Below are positions 49,655 through 54,214 of a DNA stretch of 64,000 bases, in pieces. The stretch is from assembly GCF_004683965.1 (NCBI RefSeq), contig NZ_CP038436.1, positions 1,550,001 through 1,614,000 on the forward strand, in the 5' to 3' direction. Below the pieces are notes generated by a model that was not told where the DNA came from, did no database searches, and saw only the letters and a list, made by a program, of their open reading frames with translations. This stretch comes from Nocardioides seonyuensis. GTDB taxonomy: Bacteria > Actinomycetota > Actinomycetes > Propionibacteriales > Nocardioidaceae. Position numbers and translations under genes: made by a program. Position 1 is the first letter of the stretch; each line of letters begins with the position of its first letter.

Positions 49655-49717
49655 GATCGGTGTCACAGACTGGTCCGGGCTTGGAAGGACCGACTACGGC
49701 GGGTAGATTGCGCCCAG

Positions 49718-49755
49718 CCCGGTCGTTGTTGTCTCCCCCGTCGACAACGGCCGGG
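49718..49755 (+). terminator. Terminator hairpin, tail displaced by the transposon
   Basis: 12-bp stem (cccggtcgttgt at 49718-49729 with 49744-49755, one G-T pair). The following TTCTTACA is the duplicated target, so before insertion the stem would have been followed by TTCTTACATTT. Confidence 0.7.
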
Positions 49756-49763
49756 TTCTTACA
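49756..49763. repeat. Target site duplication, left
   Basis: TTCTTACA, identical to 54207-54214, directly abutting the left inverted repeat. Confidence 0.88.
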
Positions 49764-49780
49764 GACCTACGGTGAAAACC
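49764..49780 (+). repeat. Left terminal inverted repeat
   Basis: GACCTACGGTGAAAACC. A second GGAAAACC follows at 49785-49792 as a possible subterminal transposase site. Confidence 0.85.
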
Positions 49781-49796
49781 GTGCGGAAAACCCCAG

Positions 49797-49817
49797 ACCG
49801 GCCCCGAGCGGGCCGGT
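49797..49817. terminator. Bidirectional hairpin terminator inside the left end
   Basis: ACCGGCCC / GGGCCGGT with a 5-nt loop, followed by TTT on the + strand and by a GGGGTTTT stretch on the other. It can end transcripts from the transposase gene and block read-in. Confidence 0.65.
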
Positions 49818-49962
49818 TTTGGCGTTCCGGGGGCCAGTCGAGGCGCATCCGGGCCAGAATCGCGTCGCTTACGGACCTGTTCAGGCCGGATTTCGGTGTG
49901 CGGGCATGGCTGTAACCGCCGAAGGGCTGGGAGCCGAGGCGGTGGGCCGGGACGCGGGGGCG
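49818..49962. other. Non-coding left end of the transposon
   Basis: Between the hairpin and the transposase stop. No gene was recognised; the 308-nt stretch from 49655 holds only two hairpins, the duplication and the inverted repeat. Confidence 0.5.
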
Positions 49963-51672
49963 CTACGCGGTGTCGTCGATGACGTTGGGTTCACCGTGCG
50001 CTTGGAGGTGTACCTGCCAAGCCGCTGCGTTGATCGCGATGCTTGATGCGAGAAGCCGCAGTTCTTGTCCGAGCACGTCGCGGGGCAGGTACTTGACGCG
50101 TGCCTTGAGGTCGGCGTGCCGGGCTTCGGTGTCGTTGCGGGCACCGTAGAGGTACTTGAACTGGGGTGAGCCGGGCGAGTAGACGCGCGACACCTCGCCC
50201 CAGTTGGTGTTGCCGGGGCTGGTGCTCGGGCCGTCGGTGTGGAACAGGGGGACGCGGACCTTGACCTGTTCGCGTTGGCAGTCGAGCGTCACAAGGAGGT
50301 AGTCGCGGTACTTGCCGGGCTTGCCGCGTCGTTCGTATCCGTCGGCGATGAGGAGTCGGGGTGCGTCTTCGCCGTCTGCCTTGGTGATGACTTCGATGAG
50401 TTCACCGCCGACGGCGTAGATGGGGTGCTCGCACTGGAACCCGAACTGGTCGGTGTGGGTGTGGATGTGGCGGAGTTTGCTCTTCTCCTTGCGGGAGGGG
50501 TTGAGGCGCTTGCCTGCTCCGCCGTCGGGGTTGCTGGCGGCGTGCGGGTAGTTGATGACGTGGATGCCGTCGCGCTGCAATTTGGTGACGGCGTTGCCTC
50601 GGATGGCGGAGTCGAACAGGAGCCCTCGGATGCCGCCCTTGGCGAGGTCGGCCAGTTCGGGCAGGGAGTCGAGGACCGCCGCGCTTTCGTCGTTCGCGGA
50701 GCCGGGGAGGTCCTTGTGGGTGTGAATCAGGTCGAGGATGAGCCGGGACAGGTACTGACCGTTGATGCGGGCAGACATGATCGTGAACTTGGAGCCGTAG
50801 ACCTCCCGCTTGTCGCCGGTGAAGTGCTTGTCGGCGGAGCCGATGACGTACTTCCGTGAGAAGGGGAAGACGACACCATCGCCAGCCGCGCACGAGTTGC
50901 GGTCCGGTCGACGGAACGCCCACACGGCTTCGGGGTGCAGGATGCCCATGGCGTGGGCCTGGTCGATGCCGAGGCGGCGGAAGGCGTGGAACGCCTTGTC
51001 GCGCATGCCGTAGTCGGGGTGCCCGACGGGGATGGGTCCCCGGTACTTGCCCTTCTTCTCGATGCCGCGCCAGCGGAGTTTGAAGTGGTCGAGGTGGTGC
51101 CTGCTGGGGGCGTCGCTGTGCGGGCGGGGACGGAGAGGGACAACAACGTTGAGGTTGCGTTGGCGCGCCTTCGTGCGCTCTGACTTCTGCGTTCCGGGCT
51201 TCGCCATCGGCTGGCGCTGCGCGCCGGGCTTACGACAAGGGAGGTCGCGCAGCAGCGTCATGTTCTCTGGAACGTAGGCGTCGACGTCAGCAACGAAGTC
51301 TTTCCGGTTGCGTTCGTCGCTGATGTGGTCGACGGCCCTCTTGACGGAGGCGTTCCCGGCGATTCCGGATGCGCAGACGAGGAGGAACAGGAACCAGTCC
51401 GGGAAGTGCTGCGGAGCGCCGCTGCCACGCTGTTCGTCAGCGAACAGGTTGTTGTGGGGGAAGACCTGTTCGCAGAAGAACCAGAACCAGTCGCTGCAGT
51501 AGAGGGCACGCACCTGGGCGCTCATGGCGACGCCTTGGAGTTCCTCACCGTCGCGGGTCTGACGCATCGCGAACAGGGCCTCGGGGTCTTCCCACCCTGA
51601 GAGTGCTTCGTTGACCTTCTCGGTGGGGATGGACGCGAACCGGTCGTCGGGCGTGACCCGGAGCGCAGTCAT
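49963..51672 (-). CDS. DDE-type transposase, family not assigned
   Basis: 569 residues. I read an RNase-H-like DDE core: D near residue 264 in CAAGDGVVFPFS, then the YGSKFTIMSARING strand, D near 352 in RGLLFDSAIRGNAV, and E near 510 in GARNDTEARHADLKARVKYL, followed by a long helix. The N-terminal 130 residues (FWFFCEQVFPHNN region) are unlike the common IS families I know. The gene lies within matched inverted repeats and an 8-bp duplication, so it should mobilise the element. The start codon overlaps the stop of a small upstream frame by 4 nt. Codon use is less GC-biased than in the flanking genes. Confidence 0.75.
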   Translation of the reverse strand: MTALRVTPDDRFASIPTEKVNEALSGWEDPEALFAMRQTRDGEELQGVAMSAQVRALYCSDWFWFFCEQVFPHNNLFADEQRGSGAPQHFPDWFLFLLVCASGIAGNASVKRAVDHISDERNRKDFVADVDAYVPENMTLLRDLPCRKPGAQRQPMAKPGTQKSERTKARQRNLNVVVPLRPRPHSDAPSRHHLDHFKLRWRGIEKKGKYRGPIPVGHPDYGMRDKAFHAFRRLGIDQAHAMGILHPEAVWAFRRPDRNSCAAGDGVVFPFSRKYVIGSADKHFTGDKREVYGSKFTIMSARINGQYLSRLILDLIHTHKDLPGSANDESAAVLDSLPELADLAKGGIRGLLFDSAIRGNAVTKLQRDGIHVINYPHAASNPDGGAGKRLNPSRKEKSKLRHIHTHTDQFGFQCEHPIYAVGGELIEVITKADGEDAPRLLIADGYERRGKPGKYRDYLLVTLDCQREQVKVRVPLFHTDGPSTSPGNTNWGEVSRVYSPGSPQFKYLYGARNDTEARHADLKARVKYLPRDVLGQELRLLASSIAINAAAWQVHLQAHGEPNVIDDTA

Positions 51673-51887
51673 GACTGGTCCCCGACACGGTGGGCGGGCG
51701 GCTGGTGGTCAGGGTCGTCGGAGATGAGCCAGTTGTGACCGACGACGTGGGCAGCACCGTCAAGGCTCGACATGCCAAGGCGGCGGGCAACTTCTTCAAG
51801 GCTTCCGGTGTCGGCTCGCGTACCAGCCCACCCGCACGTCGACAGTGTTGATCGCCGAGCCGGTTCAACGGAAGAGGCGACCATCAT
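51669..51887 (-). CDS. Small frame coupled to the transposase, doubtful gene
   Basis: 72 codons from ATG 51887 (or 51884), ending in TGA that overlaps the transposase ATG. The middle, GSLEEVARRLGMSSLDGAAH, could be a helix-turn-helix. Overlap suggests coupling and a possible accessory or regulatory protein, but there is no clear ribosome site and no family I recognise. Confidence 0.35.
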   Translation of the reverse strand: MMVASSVEPARRSTLSTCGWAGTRADTGSLEEVARRLGMSSLDGAAHVVGHNWLISDDPDHQPPAHRVGDQS

Positions 51888-51946
51888 GTACTTGCCACGA
51901 GCCGCCTGAACGGCCCGTTGCTAGAGGCATCCGTCGAGGAGACCCT

Positions 51947-52363
51947 TCAAGCGAGTCGCTCGCCCAGCAGGTGGATGAACTCATCCGCCATGGCGAGTTG
52001 ACGGACCAGTTGTTCGCGTCGTCCGGCAGCCTCACCGAGAACCCCGGTCAGCCGCTCTCGGGCGTGCTCAGAGTCGGGCGTACTGGCTTGCTGGAGGGTT
52101 TCGATGTCGCGCATGGCTGCGCTCATCTGGTCGAGGGAGAACCCGAGCGGCTTCATGCGGCGGATGAGGAGAATCTTGTCGACGTCGGCTTCGGTGTATA
52201 GCCGGAAGCCGCCGTCGGTGCGACCGGAAGGGCGGAGTAGGCCGACCTCTTCCCAGTGGCGCAGGCTGCGGAGCGACAGTTCGGTACGGGCGGCGACTTC
52301 ACCGATGTGCATGGCGGGCGGCTCGCCTCCTGGGCGGGCACCGGGCGCTGCTTCGTTCGGCAC
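51947..52363 (-). CDS. MerR-family transcriptional regulator
   Basis: 138 residues from GTG 52363, which has GAGAGGGG 5 nt upstream (GTG 52378 is an alternative). The winged-helix region MHIGEVAARTELSLRSLRHW then EEVGLLRPSGRTDGGFRLY is classical MerR; a dimerisation helix follows. No cysteine metal-binding loop is visible, so the effector is probably not a mercury-type metal. It is divergent from the SulP gene, with a MerR-like dyad at 52395-52413 between them. It is therefore the likely regulator of SulP and itself. Confidence 0.88.
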   Translation of the reverse strand: MPNEAAPGARPGGEPPAMHIGEVAARTELSLRSLRHWEEVGLLRPSGRTDGGFRLYTEADVDKILLIRRMKPLGFSLDQMSAAMRDIETLQQASTPDSEHARERLTGVLGEAAGRREQLVRQLAMADEFIHLLGERLA

Positions 52364-52394
52364 AGTGGCCCCTCTCACTCCGGACGGATTGCAA

Positions 52395-52413
52395 CCCTAA
52401 CGCGATGTGAGGG
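52395..52413. promoter_or_regulatory. MerR-type dyad between divergent promoters
   Basis: CCCTAAC-GCGAT-GTGAGGG, 6 of 7 positions pairing. It directly precedes TACGGT (52414-52419), the probable SulP -10; on the other strand TAGGGT (52394-52399) may be the MerR -10. Confidence 0.6.
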
Positions 52414-52419
52414 TACGGT
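52414..52419 (+). promoter_or_regulatory. -10 box of the SulP gene
   Basis: TACGGT; transcription near 52426 would give a leader of about 135 nt. Confidence 0.45.
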
Positions 52420-52435
52420 TGTTTTCAGACTTCCG

Positions 52436-52555
52436 CTGGCGACGACGCCAGCACGCGCAACCGTCATGGTGCGCACCATCAACCCCCTCAGCCAAGTCGG
52501 TCGGGCCTGTCCTCACGCAGCGACAGGCCCCACCGGCTCCCCCTTGAACGGAGCC
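52436..52555 (+). promoter_or_regulatory. Structured leader of the SulP gene
   Basis: Four elements in order: hairpin CTGGCG-ACGA-CGCCAG (52436-52451); perfect palindrome ATGGTGCGCACCAT (52466-52479); 9-bp hairpin GGGCCTGTC/GACAGGCCC (52503-52530); and 6-bp hairpin GGCTCC/GGAGCC (52535-52555) that hides the GGAG ribosome site. This looks like an attenuator or a cis-regulatory RNA. Confidence 0.55.
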
Positions 52556-52564
52556 CTTCTTTGA
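52466..52564 (+). CDS. Possible leader peptide upstream of SulP
   Basis: A 32-residue frame beginning [19 protein letters not shown]; its TGA overlaps the SulP TTG (TTGA). Translation would melt the hairpin covering the ribosome site. Its own start has no convincing Shine-Dalgarno sequence. Confidence 0.35.
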
Positions 52565-54075
52565 GCACGCCCACCACGCATGCGCCGGTGACCCACCGTG
52601 AACCATCGGTTCGCGAAGCGTTGCGGTCACCCAAGATGCTGCGCACCGAGGTCCTGGCTGGCCTCGTCGTCGCGTTGGCTCTCATCCCTGAGGCCATCTC
52701 GTTCTCCATCATCGCCGGAGTGGACCCCCGGGTCGGGCTGTTCGCGTCGTTCACGATGGCGGTGTCCATCGCGTTCCTCGGCGGACGTCCGGCAATGATT
52801 TCTGCTGCGACCGGTGCCATCGCACTCGTCATCGCACCGGTGATGCGCGACTACGGCTACGACTACCTCATTGCGACCGTGCTCCTCGGTGGCCTCATTC
52901 AGGTCGCGCTCGGGCTGGGCGGCTTCGGCAAGTTGATGCGATTCATTCCCCGCTCGGTCATGGTCGGGTTCGTCAACGCCCTCGCCATCCTCATCTTTAT
53001 GGCGCAGATCCCGTACATGGTCAACGTGCCGTGGCTGGTCTACCCGATGATTGCCGTCGGCATCGCCATCATGGTTGGCCTCCCGCGCGTCACGAGGGTC
53101 GTCCCCGCCCCGTTGGTTGCCATTGTTGCCCTCACCGGGTTCACCGTTCTCGCGGCACTCACCGTCCCCAACGTCGGCGACGAAGGCGAACTGCCCGACA
53201 GCCTCCCGTCCCTGTTCATCCCCAACGTGCCGTTGAACCTGAACACCCTCGAAATCATTGCCCCCTACGCCCTGGCGATGGCGTTGGTGGGTCTGCTGGA
53301 GTCGCTCCTGACCGCCAAGTTGGTCGACGACATCACTGACACACACTCGAACAAGACCCGCGAGTCGTGGGGTCAAGGCGTAGCGAACGTCATCACCGGG
53401 TTCTTCGGCGGCATGGGCGGCTGCGCCATGATTGGGCAGACCCTCATCAACGTGAACGTCTCGGGTGCCCGCACCCGTATCTCCACGTTCCTCGCCGGTG
53501 TCTTCCTGCTCATCCTCGTCGTCGGGTTCGGCGACGTTGTCGCCATCATCCCGATGGCTGCACTGGTCGCGGTCATGATCATCGTCGCCGTTGGCACCTT
53601 TGACTGGCACTCCATCCAGCCCGCCACCCTGCGCCGGATGCCGAAGTCAGAGACCATCGTCATGGTCGCCACCGTTGGCGTCACCGTCGCCACCCACAAC
53701 CTCGCCATCGGCGTCGTGGTGGGCGTCCTCGTCGCGATGACCCTGTTCGCTCGCCGGGTCGCGCACCTCACTGAGACCCGCCGCGAGTTGGTCGAGGACC
53801 GCAACGGCGTCGCGACCGCCGTCTACCACGTCACCGGCGAACTGTTCTTCGCCTCCTCCAACGACCTCTACACCCAGTTCGAGTACGCCGACGACCCTCA
53901 GCAGGTCGTCATCGACCTCACCCAGTCCCACATCTGGGACGCCTCCACCGTCGCCTCCCTCGACGCCATCACCAACAAGTACGAGCGCAAGGGCAAGACC
54001 GTCGACATCGTCGGCCTCAACGACGCCAGCGCAGAACGCCACGAGCGGCTCACTGGGCAGTTGTCGTCTCACTGA
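52561..54075 (+). CDS. SulP-family inorganic anion transporter with STAS domain
   Basis: 504 residues from TTG 52561, 7 nt after GGAG. The membrane domain (about residues 30-400) begins [20 protein letters not shown], the SulP signature, and continues [16 protein letters not shown]. The cytosolic STAS domain at about 415-500 contains [21 protein letters not shown]. Family members move sulfate, bicarbonate or dicarboxylates with Na+ or H+; the substrate cannot be told here. It is a cargo gene of the transposon, divergent from the MerR gene and preceded by a structured leader. Confidence 0.9.
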
Positions 54076-54189
54076 CCACTCAACCTTCGTGGGGGCGGCG
54101 GTGTCCCTTTCGCTCGTCGTCCGCGTTACTGCGAACCGACGTACGCGTTACCGCTCCGAAAGACGCGCGTCGCTGACCTCGGCCTTTGA

Positions 54190-54206
54190 GGTTTTCCACG
54201 TAGGTC
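54190..54206 (-). repeat. Right terminal inverted repeat
   Basis: GGTTTTCCACGTAGGTC; the reverse complement matches the left end except for two adjacent bases. Confidence 0.85.
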
Positions 54207-54214
54207 TTCTTACA
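54207..54214. repeat. Target site duplication, right
   Basis: TTCTTACA, directly after the right inverted repeat. Confidence 0.88.

What the first reader, a model, noticed from the sequence alone, without database searches (positions are those of the whole stretch)
49764..54206. Intact unit transposon carrying a SulP transporter and MerR regulator
Seen: 17-bp inverted ends (15 of 17 identical) exactly abut an 8-bp direct duplication TTCTTACA on each side, and the enclosed 4443 bp includes a DDE transposase with all three acidic residues readable. I do not recognise the transposase family. Anion-transporter cargo under its own MerR control is unusual for a unit transposon, and the element may be active.
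Basis: partly seen in the sequence, partly recalled or inferred. Interest (0 to 1): 0.75.

Follow-up and report, generated by a model that had tools for sequence, protein, structure and literature searches.

The report
Site-targeted transposon carrying anion transporter
A 4.4-kb mobile DNA element in a Nocardioides-type bacterium has captured an ordinary transporter and its regulator; it belongs to an apparently undescribed transposon family that lands beside tRNA genes or one conserved RNA-like hairpin, probably guided by a disarmed recombinase that this copy has lost.

Summary

In 16 of 16 other loci with a near-full-length transposase, a gene for a tyrosine-recombinase-fold protein lies directly upstream; Arg-I, His-II and the aligned tyrosine are absent in 39 of 39 aligned members. 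The window keeps only its last ~50 codons. Relatives insert precisely at tRNA 5' ends: both ends were found in 8 of 16, with duplications of 8 or 11-12 bp covering the first 7-10 tRNA nucleotides. The window element and one in N. malaquae instead abut the same conserved hairpin. Several relatives carry defence genes. Best reading: IS4/Tn5-like transposons with a TnsF-like disarmed-recombinase target selector, lost in this copy. The selector role is inferred, not shown.

The parts
49704..49709 (+). -10-like box TAGATT in front of the target hairpin
   Evidence: read in the sequence; similar promoter-like stretch in most of the 20 empty sites; promoter function inferred
49717..49755 (+). target: conserved hairpin (14-15-bp stem, C-rich loop) downstream of the SEC-C gene, directly abutting the duplication
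   Evidence: single copy in this genome; no Rfam match
49756..49763 (.). left target duplication TTCTTACA
49764..49780 (.). left (transposase-proximal) inverted end
49796..49818 (.). terminator-like hairpin inside the transposase-proximal end
   Evidence: -26.2 kcal/mol, followed by TTTT in the outward direction
49963..51672 (-). DDE transposase, 569 aa, Tn5/IS4-type fold; D265, D354, E516; Y509, R512, K523
51669..51830 (-). remnant (about 50 codons, C terminus) of the tyrosine-recombinase-fold partner gene, overlapping the transposase start codon
51947..52378 (-). MerR-family regulator (closest NCBIfam models CueR and ZntR, far below their cut-offs)
52561..54075 (+). SulP-family anion transporter with STAS domain
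   Evidence: only 31% and 28% identical paralogues in the genome
54190..54206 (.). right inverted end
54207..54214 (.). right target duplication TTCTTACA

Best explanation
The element is a cut-and-paste transposon moved by a Tn5/IS4-fold DDE transposase (fold and motifs shown; chemistry inferred). Its family normally encodes, directly upstream of the transposase, a protein with a tyrosine-recombinase (integrase) fold that lacks the catalytic residues. That partner most likely binds a short structured-RNA gene (a tRNA, or here the hairpin downstream of the SEC-C gene) and delivers the transposase to a fixed spot beside it, as TnsF does for the Tn7-like Tn6022. Insertion duplicates 8 or 11-12 bp; at tRNAs this regenerates the first nucleotides, so the tRNA body stays complete, and some element ends carry an outward -10-like box that could replace the separated promoter. 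In the window copy a MerR-SulP pair of the genus stands where all but the last ~50 codons of the partner gene should be, so this copy probably cannot choose its target by itself.
Against: No experiment; nothing here shows that the partner binds target DNA or the transposase. No second end in 8 of 16 tRNA-type loci; chance repeats of 10-12 nt also occur in that search (e.g. G806, G852), so G073 and G816 (11 bp) lean on end similarity. 9 of 27 sources have no tRNA: the two hairpin loci, four near contig ends or fragmentary, and three or so unexplained (L077, L110, L117). Duplication length differs between clades. The -10 pattern was chosen after seeing the ends; 7 of 13 tRNA-type ends have it within 130 nt (shuffle mean 0.85, maximum 4 in 2000), 6 of 13 do not. 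The second end of the N. malaquae element was not found. Many close partners have a Tyr three residues on (VGYD), so a shifted nucleophile is not strictly excluded. The window insertion itself carries no intact partner.
Confidence: 0.6

Rival explanations
1. The transposase alone recognises the tRNA or hairpin site; the recombinase-fold partner is a regulator or end-binding architectural protein.
For: The window element shows a clean insertion at the hairpin although it now has only a partner remnant. Some IS4-type elements are known for insertion specificity of their own (IS231A, passage in PMC2266710).
Against: The partner has an integrase fold, a fold built to bind inverted-repeat sites, and is kept next to the transposase in 16 of 16 loci. 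The partner may have been lost after this insertion.
Confidence: 0.22
2. The partner is a working recombinase that resolves cointegrates or circularises the element, as TnpI does in some Tn3-family transposons (recalled).
For: Integrase fold; Arg-II kept in 31 of 39; N. malaquae copy is named site-specific integrase by NCBI.
Against: Arg-I 0 of 39, His-II 0 of 39, no aligned Tyr in 39 of 39.
Confidence: 0.08
3. The window element is an ordinary IS4-type unit transposon; its place beside the hairpin is coincidence and the partner remnant is unrelated debris.
For: Single copy; partner gone.
Against: A 44%-identical transposase sits beside the same hairpin in N. malaquae; the remnant is in frame, overlaps the transposase start as in L002, and matches family members at up to 69%.
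Confidence: 0.06

Closest known systems
Tn6022 and TnsF (Tn7-like; PMC10293859, passages read)
   Same: A tyrosine-recombinase-derived protein without catalytic activity is encoded with a DDE transposition system and selects the target.
   Different: Tn6022 needs TnsA, TnsB, TnsC and TniQ and targets comM; TnsF has N-terminal zinc fingers and a partial catalytic domain. Here one Tn5-fold transposase is the only other conserved protein seen, and the targets are tRNA 5' ends or a hairpin. Sequence homology with TnsF was not tested.
IS4 family (IS231, IS50/Tn5 and others; PMC2266710, passages read)
   Same: DDE with YREK signature, Tn5 fold, duplications of 8-13 bp; passenger genes known in IS231-type elements.
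   Different: No sequence match to any Pfam or NCBIfam transposase model; protein of 569 aa; ends start GAC rather than CA or CT; paired partner gene; tRNA or hairpin targeting. The Lys of YREK is not kept in the distant branches.
Tsy elements (PMC10293859)
   Same: Recombinase-related target selector.
   Different: Tsy uses active tyrosine recombinases and no DDE transposase.
Ty1 and Dictyostelium TRE5 retrotransposons (listings only)
   Same: Insert on the 5' side of tRNA genes.
   Different: Eukaryotic retrotransposons guided by RNA polymerase III factors, not a DNA transposon with its own selector.

Membership tests
IS4 family | DDE triad with YREK, Y-(2)-R-(3)-E-(6)-K | tested here: met
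   Window protein Y509, R512, E516, K523; Lys lost in L016-type relatives
IS4 family | Duplication of about 8-13 bp | tested here: met
   8 bp in window; 8 or 11-12 bp in relatives
IS4 family | Tn5-type fold of the transposase | tested here: met
IS4 family | Conserved terminal bases of the described subgroups (5'-CA, CT, CW, -AATR) | tested here: not met
   Window ends start GAC; subgroup ends from passages of PMC2266710
IS4 family | Recognisable sequence similarity to known members | tested here: not met
   No hit in Pfam or NCBIfam for the window protein; none above noise in 26 family members in Pfam. ISfinder not available
Tn7-like with TnsF | TnsA, TnsB, TnsC, TniQ | tested here: not met
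   Not among the 4 ORFs scanned in the complete window element; not among the ORFs scanned from G245 and G274 elements (only part of their cargo ORFs)
Tn7-like with TnsF | Target selector with inactive tyrosine-recombinase domain | tested here: inconclusive
   Fold and missing residues shown; selector role not testable here
Tyrosine recombinase (active) | Arg-I, His, Arg-II, His/Trp, Tyr | tested here: not met
   Arg-I 0 of 39, His-II 0 of 39, Arg-II 31 of 39, third His 1 of 39, Tyr no aligned residue in 39 of 39

The most novel reading that the evidence does not exclude
A transposon family of Actinomycetes in which a single Tn5-fold DDE transposase is paired with a dedicated, catalytically dead tyrosine-recombinase-fold protein that selects the target (tRNA 5' ends, or one conserved hairpin RNA gene) without a Tn7-type relay, regenerates the first tRNA nucleotides through its duplication, and ferries anti-phage defence genes.
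Probability: 0.55. Interest if true: 0.85.

Novelty: new variant of a known kind. Interest (0 to 1): 0.72.

Why it matters
If right, recruitment of a disarmed tyrosine recombinase as a target selector has happened outside Tn7, in what looks like a two-gene system with no ATPase relay. That would be a very simple form of protein-guided DDE transposition and a testable model of how target selectors arise. It would also name a vehicle for restriction-modification and other defence genes in Actinomycetes, and show a bacterial DDE transposon using the 5' side of tRNA genes, a choice I otherwise found in print only for eukaryotic retrotransposons (listing). The window copy is a natural partner-less member.

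Tried and rejected
Family names: Pfam and NCBIfam give nothing for the transposase and PDB sequences only an epimerase at E 0.8; 26 family members in Pfam give only scattered single weak hits, best E 0.03.

Other collections: no relative in viral contigs (two peptide patterns only) or phages; one distant plasmid copy, 25% identity over 51%.

The window's end pattern does not occur in the N. malaquae locus at up to 3 mismatches, and the second end of that element was not found. Blind end-finding in the relatives failed until the tRNA boundary was used.

Hairpin as a known RNA family: no Rfam match.

Shared cargo with the closest metagenomic transposases: no MerR homologue in the listing lies on a contig of length 6362 or 44636; only 120 of 899 were listed, so this is weak.

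A partner supplied by the window's own genome: besides the remnant the only hit is an ordinary XerC.

Capture through the tRNA-Arg(CCT) locus, where MerR-SulP sits natively in 4 of 29 loci and in L138: suggestive, but gene orientation does not fit a simple route; left open.

Left out of counts: the 16-of-16 partner count excludes fragments (L112, L117-L119, L121, L122), the broken L116 copy, and a second, more distant DDE-like ORF type in L019, L020, L021 and L110.

Literature: searches showed no description of this family; only PMC10293859 and PMC2266710 were opened (passages), the rest seen as listings.
Full report
1. Observation. In an unbiased scan of 20 kb for duplication-plus-inverted-end pairs it ranks first, 27.0 against 24.0 for the best unrelated pair; confined to the junction it is 26.4 against 19.5. 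The element is single-copy in a closed 3.97-Mb genome.

2. Empty site. The left flank ends with a 39-nt hairpin (49717-49755) downstream of a SEC-C-type gene. I fetched 20 secC 3' regions from other genomes of the genus; 20 of 20 have the hairpin and no element. L055 reads CCGGG-CTTTCACA-TTTCC, the same 8-bp spacing as the window flanks; the others vary in the few bases after the hairpin. The hairpin is nearly invariant over 40 nt including its loop, has a TAGATT-like box upstream in most, occurs once in the genomes of the window and of G245 (3 of 7 searched genomes had any match at up to 3 mismatches), and matches no Rfam family. It may be a small RNA gene; that is inference.

4. A lost partner. 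In N. malaquae the transposase gene overlaps the stop of a 371-codon ORF. Its last ~50 codons match window 51669-51830, in frame and with the same 4-base overlap. I searched 341 genomes of the family (9 with a match), 391 of the order (5) and 394 of the class (18), sets that overlap, and took wide loci. Of loci with a transposase ORF of at least 450 aa and 160 bits, 16 of 16 have this second gene directly upstream. The window is the exception.

5. What the partner is. Weak Pfam integrase and integrase N-terminal matches (13 of 30 members each at E up to 1, best 3.6e-6 and 7.7e-5). The model (pLDDT 81.7) matches XerA, lambda integrase and Tn1549 integrase. Aligned with this genome's own XerC, Arg-I is absent in 39 of 39, His-II in 39 of 39, the third His present in 1 of 39, and nothing aligns with the catalytic Tyr in 39 of 39; Arg-II is kept in 31 of 39. 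Many close members have a Tyr three residues further on. The partner is therefore most likely a DNA-binding protein, not a recombinase.

6. Where relatives insert. ARAGORN on 27 sources finds a tRNA on the same strand 140-229 bp after the transposase stop in 14; four more have a tRNA near an element end (L019-L021, L116); nine have none. Targets are tRNA-Arg(CCT) mostly, also Lys(TTT), Gly(CCC), Arg(TCT). Searching for the second end with the tRNA boundary fixed gave 8 of 16: 12-bp duplications (CC plus the first 10 tRNA nucleotides) in G245, G274, G890 and G601, 11 bp in G073 and G816, 8 bp (first 8 nucleotides) in G002 and G286. Chance repeats of 10-12 nt occur in that search, so G073 and G816 rest partly on end similarity. 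G245 also has natural empty counterparts: five loci with SulP directly followed by tRNA-Arg(CCT). Tandem elements are seen at G002, G601 and perhaps G286. G696 has two copies at two different tRNA-Lys genes.

7. Window and N. malaquae. Their transposases are 44% identical, they fall in one supported nine-row clade (100/99), and both lie directly beyond the same hairpin. The element end facing the hairpin holds a strong terminator-like hairpin in both (-26.2 and -27.5 kcal/mol), while none of 13 tRNA-type ends goes below -15.7 (the L002 boundary is a guess). Conversely 7 of 13 tRNA-type ends and 0 of 2 hairpin-type ends have an outward TA[ACG]A[AC]T box within 130 nt (shuffle mean 0.85, maximum 4; pattern chosen after looking). 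This fits the idea that an element in front of a tRNA must bring a promoter. The boundary also abuts an inverted repeat in both cases (D-arm or hairpin), which suits binding by an integrase-fold dimer; this is inference.

8. Cargo. MerR (nearest models CueR and ZntR, far below cut-off) and SulP with STAS domain. Of the 29 best-ranked loci of the genus, 28 match both at 75-85% nucleotide identity. In this genome the other SulP proteins are 31% and 28% identical, so the element seems to hold the only copy of this type. MerR-SulP lies beside tRNA-Arg(CCT), the family's commonest target, in 4 of 29 loci and L138, and in G245 the element sits exactly between SulP and that tRNA. Relatives carry or adjoin defence genes: type III restriction (L002), type I modification and specificity genes (L018, L019), methyltransferase and helicase (L021), AbiTii, DolB and PDC-M11A matches (L020) (ends not found for L002 and L019).

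9. Comparison with print. TnsF of Tn6022 is a disarmed tyrosine-recombinase protein shown to select comM for a Tn7-like transposon (PMC10293859, passages). The IS4 family is defined by YREK and duplications of about 8-13 bp (PMC2266710, passages). The searches showed no description of a Tn5-fold transposase with such a partner at tRNA genes; the library holds open-licence papers only.

10. Verdict. The element is real; its cargo is ordinary; its family is the interesting part. New variant of a known kind; selector role inferred at about 0.6.

Noticed in passing
window 49704-49755; L054-L073: A nearly invariant 39-40-nt hairpin with C-rich loop and promoter-like box behind the SEC-C gene in 20 of 20 genomes examined; no Rfam match. 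Possible small RNA gene of the genus.
   Followed up: partly
L019 10473-12365, L020 6008-7879, L021 9446-11239, L110 185-2002: A second, more distant DDE-like ORF of about 600 codons, in L020 and L021 with its own weak recombinase-fold neighbour; larger elements may carry two such pairs.
   Followed up: no
L039, L041, L042, L048, L138: Native MerR-SulP directly followed by tRNA-Arg(CCT), the commonest target of the family; may bear on how the window element got its cargo.
   Followed up: partly
G002, G601, G286: Element ends repeated next to one tRNA: tandem insertions at the same target.
   Followed up: no
L077 10629-13152 and 14958-19223: S. mirabilis plasmid pI has the pair, annotated hypothetical, near a tyrosine recombinase, site-specific integrase and DUF6262 trio.
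   Followed up: no
L109 ends, L108 end, L122 end: Contigs that break inside these elements, suggesting several copies in G678, G696 and G784.
   Followed up: partly
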